This document shows, piece after piece, positions 207 through 55,595 of a stretch of DNA of 64,000 nt (positions are counted from its first letter, which is position 1; every line of letters starts with the position of its first letter). Source of the DNA: Fretibacterium sp. OH1220_COT-178 (GTDB lineage: Bacteria > Synergistota > Synergistia > Synergistales > Aminobacteriaceae); assembly GCF_003860125.1 (NCBI RefSeq), contig NZ_RQYL01000005.1, positions 62,001-126,000 of the forward strand. Direction: 5' to 3'. The notes under the pieces are model-generated. The model did not search any database. It was not told where the DNA came from and saw only the letters and a program-made list of their open reading frames with translations. A program made the translations under genes and the position numbers.

Positions 207-755
207 TCAGAAGGTGCGCTTCACGGTGCACCCGTCCGCAGGAAAGGGGATGTACCGGACTTTGGCCCCCTCGCGAAGTTCTCCGTAAAAGGCGACATGA
301 TAAGGCCTGAATACGCTCTCGATACTCTCCACCTCCAGGGTGATGTGTCCGCCGATCCGCCTTTTCAGGATCCTTCTGGCCAAAGCATTGCCCCGGACGG
401 CCAGAGCCGAGTCCGAAAAATCCGAAAGCTGGATCTGTTCCTCGTCGACATCCATGTCGGTTATCTCCACCCCTTGGGGATCGTAATAGGAGACCCCGCA
501 AGTGGAGCCGTTGGCGATCATCTGAATCAGAAAGTCGGAGTGCCGACCGGACTCCGACCTGCGTACGATTCGGGAGATCCAGTTGGGTGCGGACGAAACT
601 CTGTACGTGATGATCTTGTTCTCGATATAGATCGTCTTCATGTGGACCGCGACGTCTTTCCCGAGGAAAAGACGCCCGAAGAAGCCGTTGCCCCTGCTCG
701 CTTTCTTTTGTGCCTCTTCCAGGCTCAGCTTTTCTGCGAACGCTCGAATTTTCAT
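207..755 (-). CDS. hypothetical protein in the lyase/molybdenum-hydroxylase operon
   Basis: A soluble protein of 182 residues with no signal peptide, membrane segment or motif I recognise. It starts MKIRAFAEKLSLEEAQKKA and has an acidic middle (DMDVDEEQ). The frame is open to an ATG at 785, but that start has no Shine-Dalgarno sequence. The ATG at 755 is preceded by GGAG at 6 bases, so it is preferred. It lies downstream of the symporter pair with a large inverted repeat in the gap, so it may belong to the same transcript at reduced level. Function unknown. Confidence 0.6.
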   Translation of the reverse strand: MKIRAFAEKLSLEEAQKKASRGNGFFGRLFLGKDVAVHMKTIYIENKIITYRVSSAPNWISRIVRRSESGRHSDFLIQMIANGSTCGVSYYDPQGVEITDMDVDEEQIQLSDFSDSALAVRGNALARRILKRRIGGHITLEVESIESVFRPYHVAFYGELREGAKVRYIPFPADGCTVKRTF

Positions 756-48167: not shown

Positions 48168-49139
48168 ATGAAGGTTAAGGCATTGGCGGCCTGGACCGTG
48201 GGGGTGGCCCTGATCCTGGGCGCCGGCGCGTCGCTTGCGGAGCCCCCGAAGGTTTCGGGAAGCTTCCTGATGGGCACGGGGAGTGCCACGGGGAACTATT
48301 ACGCTTTCGGCAACGCGCTCGCACAGGTGGTCAACAAGCACACGGGCTCCAACATCACCGTGAGCTCCACCGGCGGGTCCGTGGAGAACGTGCGGCTCCT
48401 CAAGAAGGCCGATATCGAGATGTCCCTGGTGCAGACCGACGTCAACAACTACGCGCTGAACGGGATCGAACAGTTTGCCGACGGGGCCGTGAAGAACTTC
48501 TCCGCCGTCACCGCCTGCTATCCGGAGATGGTCCAGATCGTGGCCAGCAGGGCCAGCGGCATCAAAAGCGTGGCCGACATGCGGGGCAAGCGCATTTGCG
48601 TCGGCGCCGTCGGCTCGGGGTACGAGGTTGCGGCGCGGCAGATCCTGGGCATCTACGGCATGAGCTACGACGACATCGACGAGCGCTTCCTCAGCCAGTC
48701 CGAGGCCAAGAACGCCCTTCAGGACGATCAGATCGACGCCTTCTTCATGTGTAGCGGGTACCCCAACGCCAACGTCACCGAGCTCTCCCTGACGGGCAGG
48801 ATCGACGTGATCTCCATCGACGACGAGCACGTGGGGATGCTGCTGGAGAAGTACCCCTTCTACGCCGCCTTCACGACCCCGGACGATCAGTACAAGCTGG
48901 GCCACCCCGTGACCTCGGTGGCGGTCATGTCCATGCTCGTCGCGCTGAACGACCTTGACGAGAACGACGTCTACGCCATCACCGCGGCCATCTACGAGAA
49001 CCTCGACGAGATCCGTGCGGTGAACAAGAAGGCCGAGCACATGTCCTTGGAAAATCCCTTCCGCGGGATTCCCGGCAACGTTCACCCCGGCGCGGCCCGT
49101 TTCTACGAGGAGAAGGGGCTGAAGGTGCCCGGAAGGTAA
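48168..49139 (+). CDS. TAXI-family TRAP transporter substrate-binding protein
   Basis: A 323-residue exported protein with a signal peptide (MKVKALAAWTVGVALIL, cleavage near SLA). The TAXI-family opening is clear: MGTGSATGNYYAFGNALAQVVNKH, followed by STGGSVENVRLLKKADIEMSLVQTD. It binds an organic acid or amino acid and delivers it to the fused TRAP membrane protein encoded next. GGAGGGAAGG precedes the ATG. Glutamate or other amino/dicarboxylic acids are known ligands of some TAXI proteins; the ligand here is not determinable. Confidence 0.93.
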   Translation: MKVKALAAWTVGVALILGAGASLAEPPKVSGSFLMGTGSATGNYYAFGNALAQVVNKHTGSNITVSSTGGSVENVRLLKKADIEMSLVQTDVNNYALNGIEQFADGAVKNFSAVTACYPEMVQIVASRASGIKSVADMRGKRICVGAVGSGYEVAARQILGIYGMSYDDIDERFLSQSEAKNALQDDQIDAFFMCSGYPNANVTELSLTGRIDVISIDDEHVGMLLEKYPFYAAFTTPDDQYKLGHPVTSVAVMSMLVALNDLDENDVYAITAAIYENLDEIRAVNKKAEHMSLENPFRGIPGNVHPGAARFYEEKGLKVPGR

Positions 49140-49301
49140 GCCCCCGGGGCTTGACGCTTTTCTTCCTTTTGCTTGCTGTTTTCGAGTCCGAATCCGGCCG
49201 TTCAACGGATGCCCTCCACCCTTCCGTGAACCGCCGGATTTTTTGACTGTTGCCGTGTGGGATACGTGGACGTTCATTTACAGTACAGGAGGACCGCAGG
49301 G

Positions 49302-51257
49302 GTGAGTTTTTTCGATCGAAAAAAGTTGAACGCAGTTCCCGAGAACGTTGACCTGTCCGAGCTGGAAAGGGACTCGCGCTACCGCATCTTTTCCGGGCGC
49401 ACTGAAATCTTCATCTCGGCGGTGCTGGTGCTCTTCGCCGTTTTTCAGCTCTACGCCTCGCTGAGCGGTCGGCTGCCGCAGCAGATCCTGCGCTACGGGC
49501 ACCTCGGCTTCGCCATCAGCCTGGCCTTCATCCTCTACCCCACGACCAGGAAATCGAGCCGCAGGAAGGTCAACCCCCTGGACGTGCTCTGCTCCGTCGC
49601 CTTTCTGACGGTCGTCGCCTACTTCATCGGCAATTTCAAGGCCCTCCAGCTCCGCGCCGGCGACTACACGACCCTCGACACCGTCATGGCGGGGGTGGGG
49701 CTGTTCCTCGTGCTGCTGGCGTGCTGGCGCGTCGTGGGGCCTCCCATCGTGATCATCGCGTCGTGCTTCATCCTCTACGGCCTGATGGGCTCGCGCGGAT
49801 TGATCCCGGTCGAGATGCCCGGCTTCCTCGCGCAGAGGGGCTATCAGCTGCCGCGCGTCATCACGCACCTGTTCATCACCACCGAGGGCGTGATCGGCAA
49901 CCCCATCGGGGTCTGTTCGACGTACATCTTCCTGTTCATCCTGTTCGGCGCGTTCCTCGAGAAGACGGGGATCGGGCAGTTCTTCATCGACCTCGCCAAC
50001 GCGCTGGCGGGGTGGGCGGTGGGGGGGCCCGCCAAGGTGGCGGTGCTGTCGTCGGCCCTTCAGGGCACCGTTTCGGGCTCGTCCGTGGCGAACACCGTGT
50101 CGACGGGAGCGTTCACGATTCCCCTGATGAAATCCCTCGGCTATGCGCCGGAGTTCGCCGGCGCCGTCGAGGCCGCGGCCTCCACGGGCGGGCAGATCAT
50201 GCCCCCCGTGATGGGGTCGGCCGCCTTTCTGATCGCCGAGTCGGTGGGGGTGCCCTATTCCCACCTCATGCTGGTGGCGCTCGTGCCCGCCGTCCTGTAT
50301 TTCTCGGGGATCTGGATCATGGTGGACCTCGAGGCGCGGCGCAAGGGGCTGAGGGGCCTGCCGCGCGCGCAGCTGCCGCCGGCCGTGCCGCTCATCCTGC
50401 AAAAGGGGCATCTCGTCCTGCCGCTGTGCGCCATCATCTACTTCATGCTGTCGGGCTTCACCATCACCCGGTCGGCCCTGTGGGGCGTCGCGATCGCCGC
50501 CGTCGTCCCCTTCCTGAGGAGGAGCACCTGGGTGTCCCCCAGGCGGGTGCTCGAGGCGCTGCCCCTGTCCGCGCGGAACATCGTGTCGGTGGCCACGGCC
50601 TGCGCCACGGCCGGCATCATCGTGGGGATGGTGACCCTCACCGGCCTCGGTCAGCGCATCGGCACCGGGATGTTCCAGGTCGTGGGGGGCAACGTGTTTC
50701 TGGGGCTTCTCTGCGCCATGATCACCTCGCTGGTGCTGGGCATGGGCGTCTCCACCACCTCGAACTACATCATCACCTCGACCGTGGCGGCCCCGATCCT
50801 GATTCAGCTGGGGATCCCGCTGCTGGCGGCCCACATGTTCTGCTTCTACTTCGGCATCATCGCGGACATTACGCCGCCCGTGGCGCTGGCGGCCTACGCC
50901 GGCTCGGCGATCGCCAAGAGCAACCCCTTCAGAACCGGGGTCAACGCCTCGAAACTGGCCATCGCCGCCTTTCTGGTGCCCTATATGTTCGCGCTCAACC
51001 CCAAGCTCATCATGATCGGTGGGACCTTCTCCGAGGCGCTCCCCATGATCCTGACCGCCTTGGTCGGCCTGTTCGGCATCGGCGGCGGGCTGATCGGCTA
51101 CCTCAACGCGCCGATCGGGTCCTGCTGGCGCCTGCTCCTGGTCGCCGGCGGACTGGGGCTGCTGATCCCCGGGACGACGAGCGACCTTGTGGGGGTCTCG
51201 CTCATCCTGGCGGTGTATGGCCTGAATATGCGTAAAAGAAGAGGCGAGGCAGCCTGA
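49302..51257 (+). CDS. TRAP transporter fused permease (DctQM-type, TAXI-linked)
   Basis: A 651-residue membrane protein combining the small 4-helix and large 12-helix TRAP subunits. Family motifs include FGAFLEKTGIGQFFIDLANAL, GTVSGSSVANTVSTGAFTIPLMKSLGY and EAAASTGGQIMPPVMGSAAFL. The sodium-coupled translocation sites would be in these regions. A GTG with GGAGG at 9 bases is the likely start. It is about 160 bases downstream of the binding protein. Its last base overlaps the ATG of a truncated ATPase gene. Confidence 0.93.
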   Translation: MSFFDRKKLNAVPENVDLSELERDSRYRIFSGRTEIFISAVLVLFAVFQLYASLSGRLPQQILRYGHLGFAISLAFILYPTTRKSSRRKVNPLDVLCSVAFLTVVAYFIGNFKALQLRAGDYTTLDTVMAGVGLFLVLLACWRVVGPPIVIIASCFILYGLMGSRGLIPVEMPGFLAQRGYQLPRVITHLFITTEGVIGNPIGVCSTYIFLFILFGAFLEKTGIGQFFIDLANALAGWAVGGPAKVAVLSSALQGTVSGSSVANTVSTGAFTIPLMKSLGYAPEFAGAVEAAASTGGQIMPPVMGSAAFLIAESVGVPYSHLMLVALVPAVLYFSGIWIMVDLEARRKGLRGLPRAQLPPAVPLILQKGHLVLPLCAIIYFMLSGFTITRSALWGVAIAAVVPFLRRSTWVSPRRVLEALPLSARNIVSVATACATAGIIVGMVTLTGLGQRIGTGMFQVVGGNVFLGLLCAMITSLVLGMGVSTTSNYIITSTVAAPILIQLGIPLLAAHMFCFYFGIIADITPPVALAAYAGSAIAKSNPFRTGVNASKLAIAAFLVPYMFALNPKLIMIGGTFSEALPMILTALVGLFGIGGGLIGYLNAPIGSCWRLLLVAGGLGLLIPGTTSDLVGVSLILAVYGLNMRKRRGEAA

Positions 51258-52171: not shown

Positions 52172-52363
52172 GCGCAAGCGCTGCGACGGATACGGAGCCG
52201 CCGGGGTTCGCCCCCGCGATGGCGGTACCCTTGTCCTCCTCGATCTTCGATTCGCGGACCTTCCGATCCCCAAATATTTGAGGGGTTTCGCCTGCGTTCG
52301 TCACCCCTTCGACTCGAGGGGTGCGCGGCAAGCCGCTTCATGTTCGAGCCCTGTGCCTGCCGT

Positions 52364-53410
52364 TTACGCTTTTATATATCTCGATGCCCTTCCGGCGCCG
52401 ATTCGTCTGATCGTCCCGTCCTTTACCATCGCTCCCAGCACGGCTTCCACTGTCGTAGGACTGACGTCCGGGAGGATCTTGCATATCTCCGTCTTGGAGA
52501 GCGGCGTCAGGCTGTTCAGGACCGTCGCTTCGATGCGGGCCTTTTTGGTGATCCTTTTCCCGTGAACTACCGCGAAACGCTTGTCCAGCTCCTTGTAACA
52601 CATATACAAGGTGGATAGAAAATTTTCGATAAACGGAAAATAGGTGTTTCCATTCGTATGCCAGCCCTCGGAGGACCGCCGCAGGGCCTCGTAATAAAAT
52701 GCCTTGCGATTGTTGATCTGCTCCTCGAAAGAAACATATTTCCCCACGTCATAGCCGCTTTTATAGAGCAGAAGGAGGGAGAGCAGCCTGGACATTCTTC
52801 CGTTTCCGTCCCGGAACGGGTGGATACACAGAAAATCCAGGATCACACAGGGACTCAACAAAAGCGGATTGATGCCGGCGTCGCTGTCGGCTTCCAGATA
52901 GGCAAGCTCCAGCTGCTCCATGGCCGCCTCCGTCTCGGCTGCCGGTGTGGGGGAAAAGCGCACCTTTCGGTTTCCAGACGCATCGACCTCCAGGATGACG
53001 TTGTCGACCGTCTTGTAGCGTCCGCCGTGTTCATGCCCGGCGACGGACAGCAGCATTTCATGCAGACGCAATATGTCGCTCTGCCGGAAATGGATGTGCT
53101 CGTACCCCAGATGTATTGCATTCAGGGCGTCCCTGTACCCGGCAATTTCCGCTTCGTTGTGGTTCAACGGTGCGCTGTTCTGATTGACGATGGCCGCGAT
53201 ACGCTCATCACTGGTGACGATCCCCTCGATAGCATTGGAACTTTTGACGGACTGTATTTTTGCAATGGCCTCCAACTCTGTGAAGACACGGATGTACTCC
53301 TCTTTTCGGATACCGGCCATCGTTTTCAGGCTTGCGATGCCCGCCGTCAGGTTCGCCAGGTTTGCAGGCAGCAGCCCATTGCCAAGAAAAGAATAATCAA
53401 ATCTTCTCAT
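52364..53410 (-). CDS. Fic-domain protein with C-terminal winged helix
   Basis: A 348-residue Fic protein that likely AMPylates a target. The active-site loop is HPFRDGNGRMSRL and the inhibitory helix motif lies upstream as SSNAIEG, which makes it a class II enzyme (inhibitor N-terminal to the Fic core). Residues about 290-348 look like a winged helix (KTEICKILPDVSPTTVEAVLGAM). AGGAGG-like GGAGG lies 8 bases before ATG 53410. Base composition is lower in GC than neighbours, suggesting transfer. Four copies of a 12-base half-site in its promoter suggest autoregulation. Confidence 0.9.
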   Translation of the reverse strand: MRRFDYSFLGNGLLPANLANLTAGIASLKTMAGIRKEEYIRVFTELEAIAKIQSVKSSNAIEGIVTSDERIAAIVNQNSAPLNHNEAEIAGYRDALNAIHLGYEHIHFRQSDILRLHEMLLSVAGHEHGGRYKTVDNVILEVDASGNRKVRFSPTPAAETEAAMEQLELAYLEADSDAGINPLLLSPCVILDFLCIHPFRDGNGRMSRLLSLLLLYKSGYDVGKYVSFEEQINNRKAFYYEALRRSSEGWHTNGNTYFPFIENFLSTLYMCYKELDKRFAVVHGKRITKKARIEATVLNSLTPLSKTEICKILPDVSPTTVEAVLGAMVKDGTIRRIGAGRASRYIKA

Positions 53411-53423
53411 GATGCCAGCCTCC

Positions 53424-53513
53424 AATCTGCATATAAAAGTACCAGGCTATATGCAGATTATCAAGCCTCTCAAAGCAGAATCTGCATATAATCGCCTGGA
53501 ATATATGCAGATT
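53424..53513. promoter_or_regulatory. two tandem copies of a split palindrome upstream of the Fic gene
   Basis: AATCTGCATATA occurs at 53424-53435 and 53479-53490. Its exact complement TATATGCAGATT occurs at 53448-53459 and 53502-53513. The half-sites are separated by 12 and 11 bases, about one helical turn, and the two pairs by 19 bases. All four are perfect 12-mers, which is unlikely by chance, and they flank the Fic promoter region. They look like operator sites for a dimeric winged-helix protein. Confidence 0.75.
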
Positions 53514-53587: not shown

Positions 53588-55522
53588 TCAATCGCGGACG
53601 ACGGAGGTCTGCGGTTGATTTTGAGGGGGAATGGCGCCCTCCGCTCCACCGGTCCCGACCCGGCATCGGTCCCTTTCCCGCAGCAGCAGCGCCGCGTTGA
53701 CCACGACGAAGACGGAGCCGAAGTTGTGCCACAGCGCGCCGGTGACGGGAGTCAGGATCCCCGCCGCGGACAGCGAGACGGCACTGGCGTTGATGACGAG
53801 GGAGGCGATGATGTTGGTCCTCACCTTATCCATCGCCCTTCTCGTCAGCCGGAACAGGTAGGGGAGGCGCTTGATGTCGTCGCCGACGAGGACGGCGTCC
53901 GCGGCCTCGACCGCGATGTCGCTGCCGATCCCGCCCATCGCGATGCCGGCGTAGGCGCCGCTCAGGGCCGGAGCGTCGTTCACCCCGTCCCCGATCATGC
54001 AGGTCGGTTCCCTCTCGTCGTCTCCCTTGACGATGGATGCCTTTTCCTCCGGCAGCAGGTTGGCGCGAACCTCCGATATCCCCGCGGCCTCTGCCGCCGC
54101 CGCGGCCGCACGCTCGTTGTCCCCCGTGAGGAGCATACAGGAGATGCCGAGCCCCTCCAGGGCCCGAACCGTGTCCTTCGCGTCCGGACGGATCTCGTCC
54201 GCCAGGGCGATCAGGCCGACGATCCGGGCGCCGCGGGAGAGGAGGACGACCGTCGCCCCCCGATCCAGGAACTCCTCTGCCGCCTCCGCGGCCCCGTCGG
54301 GTGAAATTCCCCGCGAGGCGAAGTAATCCGCCTTCCCGACCGCGACCTCCGTCCCGTCGATCGTGCCGCTCATGGCCCGGCCGGCGATCGCCCGGGAGTC
54401 GGCGACGGGCTCGGGATCCTCTCCCGTCCTCTCCAGGAAGGACGCGACGACGGCCTTGCCGAGCGGGTGTTCGGAGCGGCGCTCGACCCGCGCCGCGATG
54501 CGGAGGACGTCCCCGTCCGAGAGGGAGGCGTCGAGGCTCCTGAAGGCGACGACCTGCGGCCGCCCGTGGGTGAGGGTCCCCGTCTTGTCGAAGGCCGCGC
54601 GCCTCACCCTCGAAAGGCGCTCCAGCGCGTCGCCGGAACGGATCAGGATTCCATGGCGCGCCGCGTTTCCCATCCCCGCGACGACCGCCGTGGGCGTCGC
54701 CAGGATGAAGGCGCAGGGGCAGAAGACGACGAGCACCGTCACGGCCCGGACGAACTCGCCCGTGAGGAGCCAGGTGAGGAGGGCGCAGGCGAGCGCGGCG
54801 ACGACGAGCCACGTCGCCCAGGCGTCGGCCAGGGAGACGATGGGCGCCTTGTTCTCGTCCGCCTCCTCCGCGAGCCGGATCATCCGCTGGAGCGAGCTGT
54901 CGCCGCAGACCCGGTCCGCACGCATGGAGAACGTCCCGAACCGGTTTATCGTGCCGCTGGTGACCGAGTCGCCCTCCCCCTTGTCCACGGGGATGCTCTC
55001 GCCGGTCATCACGGACTGGTCGATGGAGGTCCGTCCCTCCAGGATGGTCCCGTCGACCGGGATCGTCTCGCCGGCGAGCACGGTCAGGACGTCGCCCTCC
55101 CGCACTTCCTCGGCGGGCAGGACGACGTCGGCCCCCTCCCGTCTGACGCGCGCCGTCCGGGGCGTGAGCCCGATCAGCTTCTCGATGCCGCGGCGCGCCC
55201 TTTCGGAGGTGTAGTCCTCCAGCAAAGACCCGATCTGCATGATCAGCGCAACCTCGCCGGCCGCGAAATATTCCCCTATCCCTACGGAGGCGGCGAGCGC
55301 CATGGCGACCAGGAGGTCGGCCTTGATGTCGCGCTCGAAAATCACTCCCCTTGCGGCACCGACGACGATCGGGACGCCGCAGAGGACGATCGCCACCCAC
55401 GCGATGTCCGCCGGGAGGCTGCCCTCGAACGTGCCCGCCAGGCTCAGCGCCAGGGAAACCGCCGAGACCAGAACGCAGACGACCGTGGTGCGCGTCTCGT
55501 TTTCCATCCATTTCCCGAACAT
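53588..55522 (-). CDS. P1B-type heavy-metal-transporting ATPase
   Basis: A 644-residue P-type ATPase. Motifs in order are the actuator loop MTGESIPVDKGEGD, the metal-site CPC in FCPCAFILATPTA, the phosphorylated aspartate in FDKTGTLTHG, the HP dipeptide in SEHPLGKAVV, GDGVNDAPALSGA, and the last helices with ALWHNFGSVFVVVNAALLL. It has no N-terminal HMA metal-binding domain. The final-helix His-Asn-x-Gly-Ser pattern differs from the classic Cu(I) and Zn/Cd types, so the metal is not assigned. ATG 55522 follows GGGAGG. Its promoter region repeats the TetR operator region. Confidence 0.9.
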   Translation of the reverse strand: MFGKWMENETRTTVVCVLVSAVSLALSLAGTFEGSLPADIAWVAIVLCGVPIVVGAARGVIFERDIKADLLVAMALAASVGIGEYFAAGEVALIMQIGSLLEDYTSERARRGIEKLIGLTPRTARVRREGADVVLPAEEVREGDVLTVLAGETIPVDGTILEGRTSIDQSVMTGESIPVDKGEGDSVTSGTINRFGTFSMRADRVCGDSSLQRMIRLAEEADENKAPIVSLADAWATWLVVAALACALLTWLLTGEFVRAVTVLVVFCPCAFILATPTAVVAGMGNAARHGILIRSGDALERLSRVRRAAFDKTGTLTHGRPQVVAFRSLDASLSDGDVLRIAARVERRSEHPLGKAVVASFLERTGEDPEPVADSRAIAGRAMSGTIDGTEVAVGKADYFASRGISPDGAAEAAEEFLDRGATVVLLSRGARIVGLIALADEIRPDAKDTVRALEGLGISCMLLTGDNERAAAAAAEAAGISEVRANLLPEEKASIVKGDDEREPTCMIGDGVNDAPALSGAYAGIAMGGIGSDIAVEAADAVLVGDDIKRLPYLFRLTRRAMDKVRTNIIASLVINASAVSLSAAGILTPVTGALWHNFGSVFVVVNAALLLRERDRCRVGTGGAEGAIPPQNQPQTSVVRD

Positions 55523-55595
55523 GATGCCCTCCCGCGTCCTCGCCCCTGTACGAAGCCTGAGGGGCGATAAAATAGAGAACGAAATCATCGTTATT

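What the first reader, a model, noticed from the sequence alone, without database searches (positions are those of the whole stretch)
53424..53513. Four perfect 12-base half-sites in the Fic promoter
Two inverted pairs of AATCTGCATATA with nearly equal spacers lie head to tail within 90 bases upstream of the Fic gene. The Fic protein ends in a winged helix, so it may bind these sites and repress itself, coupling AMPylation state to transcription. The gene has low GC, which suggests that it arrived with its operators.
Basis: partly seen in the sequence, partly recalled or inferred. Interest (0 to 1): 0.52.

Follow-up and report, generated by a model that had tools for sequence, protein, structure and literature searches.

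The report
Self-repressing Fic enzyme with matched operators
A gene for a protein-modifying enzyme carries, in its own promoter, paired DNA sites that the enzyme's own DNA-binding tail very probably recognises to switch the gene off, and the same sites recur in front of related genes in many unrelated gut microbes, changing together with the DNA-contacting helix of the protein.

Summary
Four perfect AATCTGCATATA copies form two inverted pairs (spacers 12 and 11 bp) at 53424-53513, just upstream of a Fic gene (53410-52364, minus strand), and nowhere else in the window. Reading: two operators for autorepression by the Fic protein itself.

Evidence: the inverted TCTGCATATA pair precedes the gene in 66 of 77 sampled homologues (shuffles: at most 1), archaeal ones included. 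The proximal operator straddles the promoter. Operator centres lie about 43.7 or 54.3 bp apart, one helical turn different, none between. In 36 genomes searched, all 29 distinct pattern matches sit at Fic promoters. Half-sites differ between subfamilies and track the recognition helix of the C-terminal winged helix, which ranks first of 340 protein windows in redundancy-reduced tests.

Closest precedent: CccR, a FIC-HTH autorepressor proven by footprinting, with another site and a 26-bp spacer. So this is a new variant of a known kind. Binding, repression and any coupling to AMPylation are inferred, not measured. SoFic promoters carry a different repeated site (TCGACAT), a direct prediction for that defence enzyme.

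The parts
52364..53410 (-). Fic gene, 348 aa from ATG at 53410-53408; stop at 52364-52366
   Evidence: ORF, translation, Pfam Fic, homologues starting at the same Met
53222..53239 (-). Inhibitory alpha-helix motif SNAIEG, residues 58-63 (class II Fic)
   Evidence: SN-x-(I/L)-E-(G/N) in 140 of 141 aligned homologues, the other being STRIEG; class II definition as in PMC9755527 section 9
52787..52822 (-). FIC catalytic motif HPFRDGNGRMSR, residues 197-208
   Evidence: 141 aligned rows: H197 0.99, P198 1.00, G202 1.00, N203 1.00, R205 1.00, R208 1.00
52367..52546 (-). C-terminal winged helix, residues 289-348
   Evidence: AlphaFold2 model: helices 289-298, 306-312, 318-331, strands 334-337, 344-347; weak Pfam HTH matches below cut-off
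52436..52462 (-). Recognition helix, residues 317-325 SPTTVEAVL
   Evidence: rank 1 of 340 nine-residue windows for covariation with half-site sequence in three redundancy-reduced sets; rank 2 in the full set
53424..53459 (.). Proximal operator: AATCTGCATATA-N12-TATATGCAGATT
   Evidence: conserved in homologues
53479..53513 (.). Distal operator: AATCTGCATATA-N11-TATATGCAGATT
   Evidence: two or more operators in 51 of 77 upstreams
53459..53464 (-). Putative -35 hexamer TTGATA, starting 7 nt before the TCTGCATATA arm
   Evidence: best -35-like hexamer at this offset in 36 of 57 aligned proximal operators
53436..53441 (-). Putative -10 hexamer TACTTT (3 of 6 match to TATAAT), inside the operator spacer, 17 bp from the -35
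   Evidence: read from sequence
53419..53423 (-). Ribosome-binding site GGAGG, directly next to the operator arm
   Evidence: read from sequence

Best explanation
This is a self-contained, horizontally moving, autorepressed class II Fic enzyme. A Fic dimer places its two C-terminal winged helices on the two half-sites of an inverted repeat. Two such operators lie on the same face of the DNA (centres about 44 or 54 bp apart), so two dimers probably bind cooperatively. The proximal operator covers the -35/-10 region and the likely start of transcription, so a bound dimer blocks RNA polymerase and keeps the protein scarce. Shown here: sites, conservation, promoter overlap, helical phasing, confinement of the intact operator to this gene, covariation with the recognition helix. 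Inferred: binding by the Fic protein, dimer stoichiometry, cooperativity, repression. Speculative: that operator DNA also switches the enzyme between AMPylation and deAMPylation, as proposed for Coxiella CbFic2.
For: Inverted TCTGCATATA pairs (at most 2 mismatches a half-site, spacer 10-13) in 66 of 77 upstreams (window plus 76 genome contigs homologues); shuffled mean 0.02, maximum 1. Free search for inverted repeats (10-nt arms, 9 or more matches, spacer 8-16, last 130 nt): 105 of 130 distinct homologues against a shuffled mean of 9.0, maximum 16. Of 55 centre-to-centre distances, 26 lie at 41-46 bp (mean 43.7), 28 at 52-56 (mean 54.3), 0 between, 1 elsewhere at 22.5. Promoter overlap. Operator pattern in 36 genomes: 24 have it, and all 29 distinct matched sequences occur in Fic upstreams, control 0 (G103 and G209 among the 24 look like one genome held twice). 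Covariation: partial correlation 0.375 between half-site distance and recognition-helix distance given Fic-domain distance, 0 of 2000 permutations as high; after thinning to 95, 56 and 25 proteins, helix 317-325 ranks 1 of 340 each time with r 0.38, 0.40, 0.48 and 0 of 1000 permutations as high. Predicted winged helix with 318-331 as third helix. Published precedent CccR.
Against: No binding or expression data for any member of this subfamily. 11 of 77 upstreams lack the pair; most of these have another inverted or reiterated site with another helix sequence, but L062 and L076 have near-standard helices (SPTTVEAAL, TPTTVESVI) and no pair, and L079 has a near-standard helix (SVTTIEAVL) with a TTGCATAT variant. 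Partial Mantel tests can be inflated by shared ancestry. In the full set, single residues outside the winged helix (166, 191) gave slightly higher single-column correlations than residue 319. The window's -10 hexamer is weak. Among remote SoFic-like proteins a generic repeat test was only weakly above shuffles (9 of 22 against a mean of 4.6, maximum 6).
Confidence: 0.88

Rival explanations
1. A host-encoded regulator, not the Fic protein, binds the operators.
For: No direct binding data; the operator is in an intergenic promoter, where any regulator could act.
Against: The same site precedes the gene in hosts of many phyla and in archaea, occurs only at Fic promoters in the 36 genomes searched, no neighbour gene is shared widely by the non-phage loci, and site sequence follows the Fic recognition helix.
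Confidence: 0.06
2. The inverted repeats act as RNA hairpins (terminator or attenuator), not as protein-binding sites.
For: The distal pair in the window has 17-nt arms with a 5-nt loop and a T run on the plus-strand side.
Against: In relatives the spacers are 10-12 nt, and the sequence itself and not only the pairing is conserved; the proximal pair overlaps -35/-10, so it would be only partly transcribed. No RNA folding test was run on it.
Confidence: 0.03
3. The repeats are ends or recombination sites of a mobile element that carries the Fic gene.
For: In several relatives the conserved DNA block ends near the distal operator and at the stop codon; the gene moves between phyla and occurs on plasmids and phages.
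Against: All four copies lie on one side of the gene, none downstream; operators keep fixed spacing to the start codon and promoter.
Confidence: 0.03

Closest known systems
CccR of Yersinia pseudotuberculosis (PMC9755527; abstract, section 9, part 1 of 2 of section 10 and found passages read; protein sequence not fetched)
   Same: Class II Fic enzyme with C-terminal helix-turn-helix; binds inverted repeats near -35/-10 of its own promoter as a dimer and represses itself (shown there by lacZ fusion, EMSA, DNase I footprint, ITC).
   Different: Half-site AGATAATCAT with a 26-bp spacer against TCTGCATATA with 10-13 bp here; one footprinted pair there, two phased operators here; CccR is a type VI-secreted effector acting on FtsZ, for which nothing was tested here.
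SoFic (Shewanella oneidensis SO_4266, PDB 3EQX/3ZCN; NCBIfam NF046030; PADLOC SoFic)
   Same: Fic plus C-terminal winged-helix layout; structural match over model residues 1-348 (3ZCN: Z 26.6, rmsd 5.9, 298 aligned); PADLOC SoFic model E 9.9e-34.
   Different: NCBIfam equivalog score 40.3 against a cut-off of 550. SoFic genes in sampled genomes carry another repeat, TCGACAT, upstream.
CbFic2 of Coxiella burnetii (PMC10628234; abstract, outline and found passages read; sequence not fetched)
   Same: Class II Fic with winged helix; DNA binding drives dimerisation.
   Different: Its specific site is not known, random DNA was used; DNA-stimulated (de)AMPylation measured there, not here.
Bordetella bronchiseptica Fic family protein (PDB 8UQU)
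   Same: Closest solved sequence, E 7.7e-68 over query residues 49-352, winged helix included in the chain sequence; fold Z 33.8, rmsd 1.6, 252 aligned.
   Different: Its title gives only the N-terminal domain; no paper naming 8UQU found.

Membership tests
Class II Fic (AMPylase) proteins | FIC motif HPFx(D/E)GNGRxxR | tested here: met
   HPFRDGNGRMSR at 197-208; Pfam Fic over cut-off
Class II Fic (AMPylase) proteins | Inhibitory helix (S/T)xxxE(G/N) N-terminal to the FIC motif | tested here: met
   SNAIEG at 58-63; SN-x-(I/L)-E-(G/N) in 140 of 141 homologues, STRIEG in one
Class II Fic (AMPylase) proteins | AMP transfer activity | not testable with these tools
   needs biochemistry
CccR-type FIC-HTH autorepressors | C-terminal helix-turn-helix / winged helix | tested here: met
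   model helices and wing at 289-347
CccR-type FIC-HTH autorepressors | Inverted repeat over the own promoter | tested here: met
CccR-type FIC-HTH autorepressors | Same half-site and 26-bp spacer as CccR | tested here: not met
   TCTGCATATA, spacers 10-12 found against AGATAATCAT, N26
CccR-type FIC-HTH autorepressors | Direct binding and repression by the Fic protein | not testable with these tools
   covariation with the recognition helix is indirect support
CccR-type FIC-HTH autorepressors | Type VI secretion and FtsZ as target | not tested
   -
SoFic (NCBIfam NF046030 equivalog) | Score at or above the curated cut-off of 550 bits | tested here: not met
   40.3 bits
SoFic anti-phage defence | Protection against phage | not testable with these tools
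   PADLOC model match 9.9e-34 only

The most novel reading that the evidence does not exclude
Fic enzymes with a C-terminal winged helix are, as a superfamily (SoFic included), single-gene feedback modules whose operator DNA is also an allosteric ligand: on the operator the enzyme is a dimeric repressor and deAMPylase, off it an AMPylase, so that one protein reads its own abundance on its own promoter. The operators have diversified together with the recognition helix as the genes moved between phyla, phages and plasmids, which keeps the modules from cross-repressing each other.
Probability: 0.25. Interest if true: 0.75.

Novelty: new variant of a known kind. Interest (0 to 1): 0.55.

Why it matters
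Of the Fic proteins with winged helices in the papers read, only CccR has a known specific DNA site; PMC10628234 states that DNA binding by SoFic has not been shown and calls for work on the specific site of CbFic2. This case gives a large set of natural operators with their matching recognition helices, and a concrete candidate site for SoFic, so that both DNA specificity and the question whether operator DNA controls AMPylation become directly testable.

Tried and rejected
Host regulator, RNA hairpin and mobile-element-end readings: see rivals. A shared partner gene (such as the antitoxin AS1 of Sofic) was looked for among flanking reading frames: of the 25 largest clusters printed, those recurring in 9 or more loci were all from viral contigs; clusters holding cellular loci reached 8 loci at most, at varying positions, so no conserved partner was found. 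A wider regulon was looked for: none seen with exact or near-exact patterns, but degenerate sites were not scanned genome-wide. A generic 8-mer repeat test in remote families was positive for 13 of 20 gammaproteobacterial homologues (shuffled mean 3.6, maximum 6), for 6 of 7 SoFic genes (shuffled mean 1.6, maximum 3), and only marginal for SoFic-like proteins (9 of 22, shuffled mean 4.6, maximum 6). The half-site TCTGCATATA was derived from these same promoters, so its count there is descriptive; the shuffles and the free inverted-repeat search are the controls.

Rows dropped before counts: L024, L047, L070 and L078 (too little upstream sequence or partial match) from the 80; L090, L097, L098, L100, L101, L131, L141, L145, L146, L149, L150 from the later sets; identical proteins counted once; half-sites with fewer than 9 of 10 matching arm positions left out of the covariation tests (108 kept), so those tests cover only proteins with a clear inverted repeat. 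In one search the tally of other homologues (11 of 64) wrongly includes the window; it is 10 of 63. The shuffle control crashed and was repeated. The structure list leaves the winged helix barely tested by fold. Literature searches for this site or family; none showed it, in an open-access library only.

Full report
Observation. The four AATCTGCATATA copies are exact and unique in the window, arranged as two inverted pairs with spacers of 12 and 11 bp, and in the whole 2.86-Mb assembly the pattern TCTGCATATA-N10..14-TATATGCAGA is found only here. They lie in the 177-bp gap between the end of an upstream reading frame at 53588 and the Fic start codon at 53410.

The protein. The 348-aa product has a Fic domain over the Pfam cut-off, an intact FIC motif, the class II inhibitory motif SNAIEG and, in an AlphaFold2 model with mean pLDDT 91, a C-terminal winged helix with helices 289-298, 306-312, 318-331 and a two-stranded wing. 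Closest solved sequence is 8UQU from Bordetella bronchiseptica; SoFic and CbFic2 are among the structural matches. It is not a SoFic equivalog by NCBIfam (40.3 bits against 550).

Homologous promoters. The single genome-contig scan kept the best 80 of at least 578 relatives, 50-86% identical, from many phyla and from archaea. Of 77 upstream regions long enough to score (window included), 66 carry the inverted TCTGCATATA pair and 51 carry two or more; shuffled sequences give at most 1 of 77. The 11 without it are listed: most have another inverted or reiterated site (for example ACTACCCAAA, ACTCTATATA, TTACTACATA) together with a changed helix, but L062 and L076 have near-standard helices and no pair.

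Promoter geometry. Aligning proximal operators with a 12-bp spacer gives the consensus CTTGATTTTCTGCATATAAAATGGTATAATTATATGCAGAAAGGAG (weak positions included): the -35-like TTGATT is followed by the left arm, the -10-like TATAAT lies in the spacer and the right arm runs into the ribosome-binding site; the best -35-like hexamer is at the same offset in 36 of 57. In the window these are 53459-53464 (TTGATA) and 53436-53441 (TACTTT, weak). Of 55 distances between neighbouring operators, 26 average 43.7 bp and 28 average 54.3 bp, with none between 46 and 52 and one at 22.5. The difference of 10.6 bp is one turn of the helix, so the two dimers sit on the same face: a sign of protein-protein contact.

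Who binds. Further homologues from the phylum, viral contigs and phage and plasmid records bring other half-sites: TTCGCCTAA, TTCCCTTAA, CGTCCA, TTCGACCA, TCTGCATCAT and more. Half-site distance correlates with recognition-helix distance after Fic-domain distance is removed (0.375; 0 of 2000 permutations as high). Scanning all 340 nine-residue windows without prior choice, the best six in the full set start at 314-319, and in sets thinned at 90, 75 and 65% Fic-domain identity (95, 56, 25 proteins) the window 317-325 ranks first each time. That window is the start of the third helix of the winged helix. This is the strongest argument that the Fic protein itself is the repressor. Limits: only proteins with a clear inverted repeat entered the test (108), and shared ancestry is only partly removed.

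Regulon. In 36 genomes searched for CTGCAYATA-N11..15-TATRTGCAG, 24 had matches, and the 29 distinct matched sequences all occur in Fic upstream regions; the control pattern had none. Twelve of the 36 had no exact match to this pattern, although their Fic promoters hold variants. The intact operator therefore serves this gene alone; weaker sites were not scanned.

Transfer. A homologue is present in 16 of 185 genomes of the window's phylum at E 1e-15. One genome of the window's family (G103) has the same contig coordinates and operator as G209, the genome of L058, titled Synergistaceae bacterium, so the window is inferred to be from Synergistaceae. Its Fic protein nests within Bacillota (set of 3 with L003 and L067, support 100/99; bins may hold foreign contigs). 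DNA similarity to the eight best rows starts at 52362-52376 and ends between 53410 and 53536, in five of them (L084, L085, L086, L067, L003) at or just past the distal operator. Together with the low GC this supports arrival as a unit of operators plus gene, though loss of similarity outside may also be plain divergence. The unit has no conserved partner gene in cellular genomes.

Wider family. SoFic genes above the NCBIfam cut-off (7 of 229 sampled genomes) carry TCGACAT 25 times in their seven upstream regions, shuffles at most 2 in all (the motif was chosen after looking at these regions). Another gammaproteobacterial group shows direct repeats such as TCGGGTAT or TGGGTGTAAT. This suggests, without proof, that autoregulation is usual for Fic proteins with this tail.

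Known background. CccR is an experimentally proven FIC-HTH autorepressor with AGATAATCAT-N26-ATGATAATCT (section 9 and part 1 of section 10 of PMC9755527). CbFic2 switches towards deAMPylation when DNA drives its dimerisation, and its authors suggest that CccR might do so too (passages of PMC10628234). Anti-Sofic AS1 is described in PMC12249575 (abstract and passages). The searches showed no paper on this operator family.

Verdict. Real, well conserved and mechanistically coherent; a new variant of a known kind. Binding, repression and any allosteric effect of DNA on the enzyme remain to be measured.

Noticed in passing
L102-L151 (viral contigs); L151:3001-4074: Phage homologues often lie among reading frames shared between viral contigs; in the annotated record PV036453 the Fic gene stands between the terminase large subunit and the portal gene: a cargo gene in the packaging region.
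   Followed up: partly
L204-L210, 250 nt upstream of SoFic genes: SoFic genes carry repeated TCGACAT sites upstream (25 in seven regions; shuffles at most 2), a candidate operator for a defence enzyme whose DNA site is not known.
   Followed up: partly
L189-L203 upstream regions: A more distant gammaproteobacterial Fic group has tandem direct repeats (TCGGGTAT, TGGGTGTAAT) close before the start codon, not inverted pairs: a different operator layout.
   Followed up: partly
L030, L032, L039 upstream regions: Some promoters hold three operators in a row rather than two.
   Followed up: no
window 53588-55588 (-) and 48168-51257 (+): Neighbours look like a heavy-metal P-type ATPase (ends 177 bp before the Fic start) and a TRAP-type transporter pair, by reading of the ORFs only; nothing suggests that they belong to the Fic unit.
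   Followed up: no
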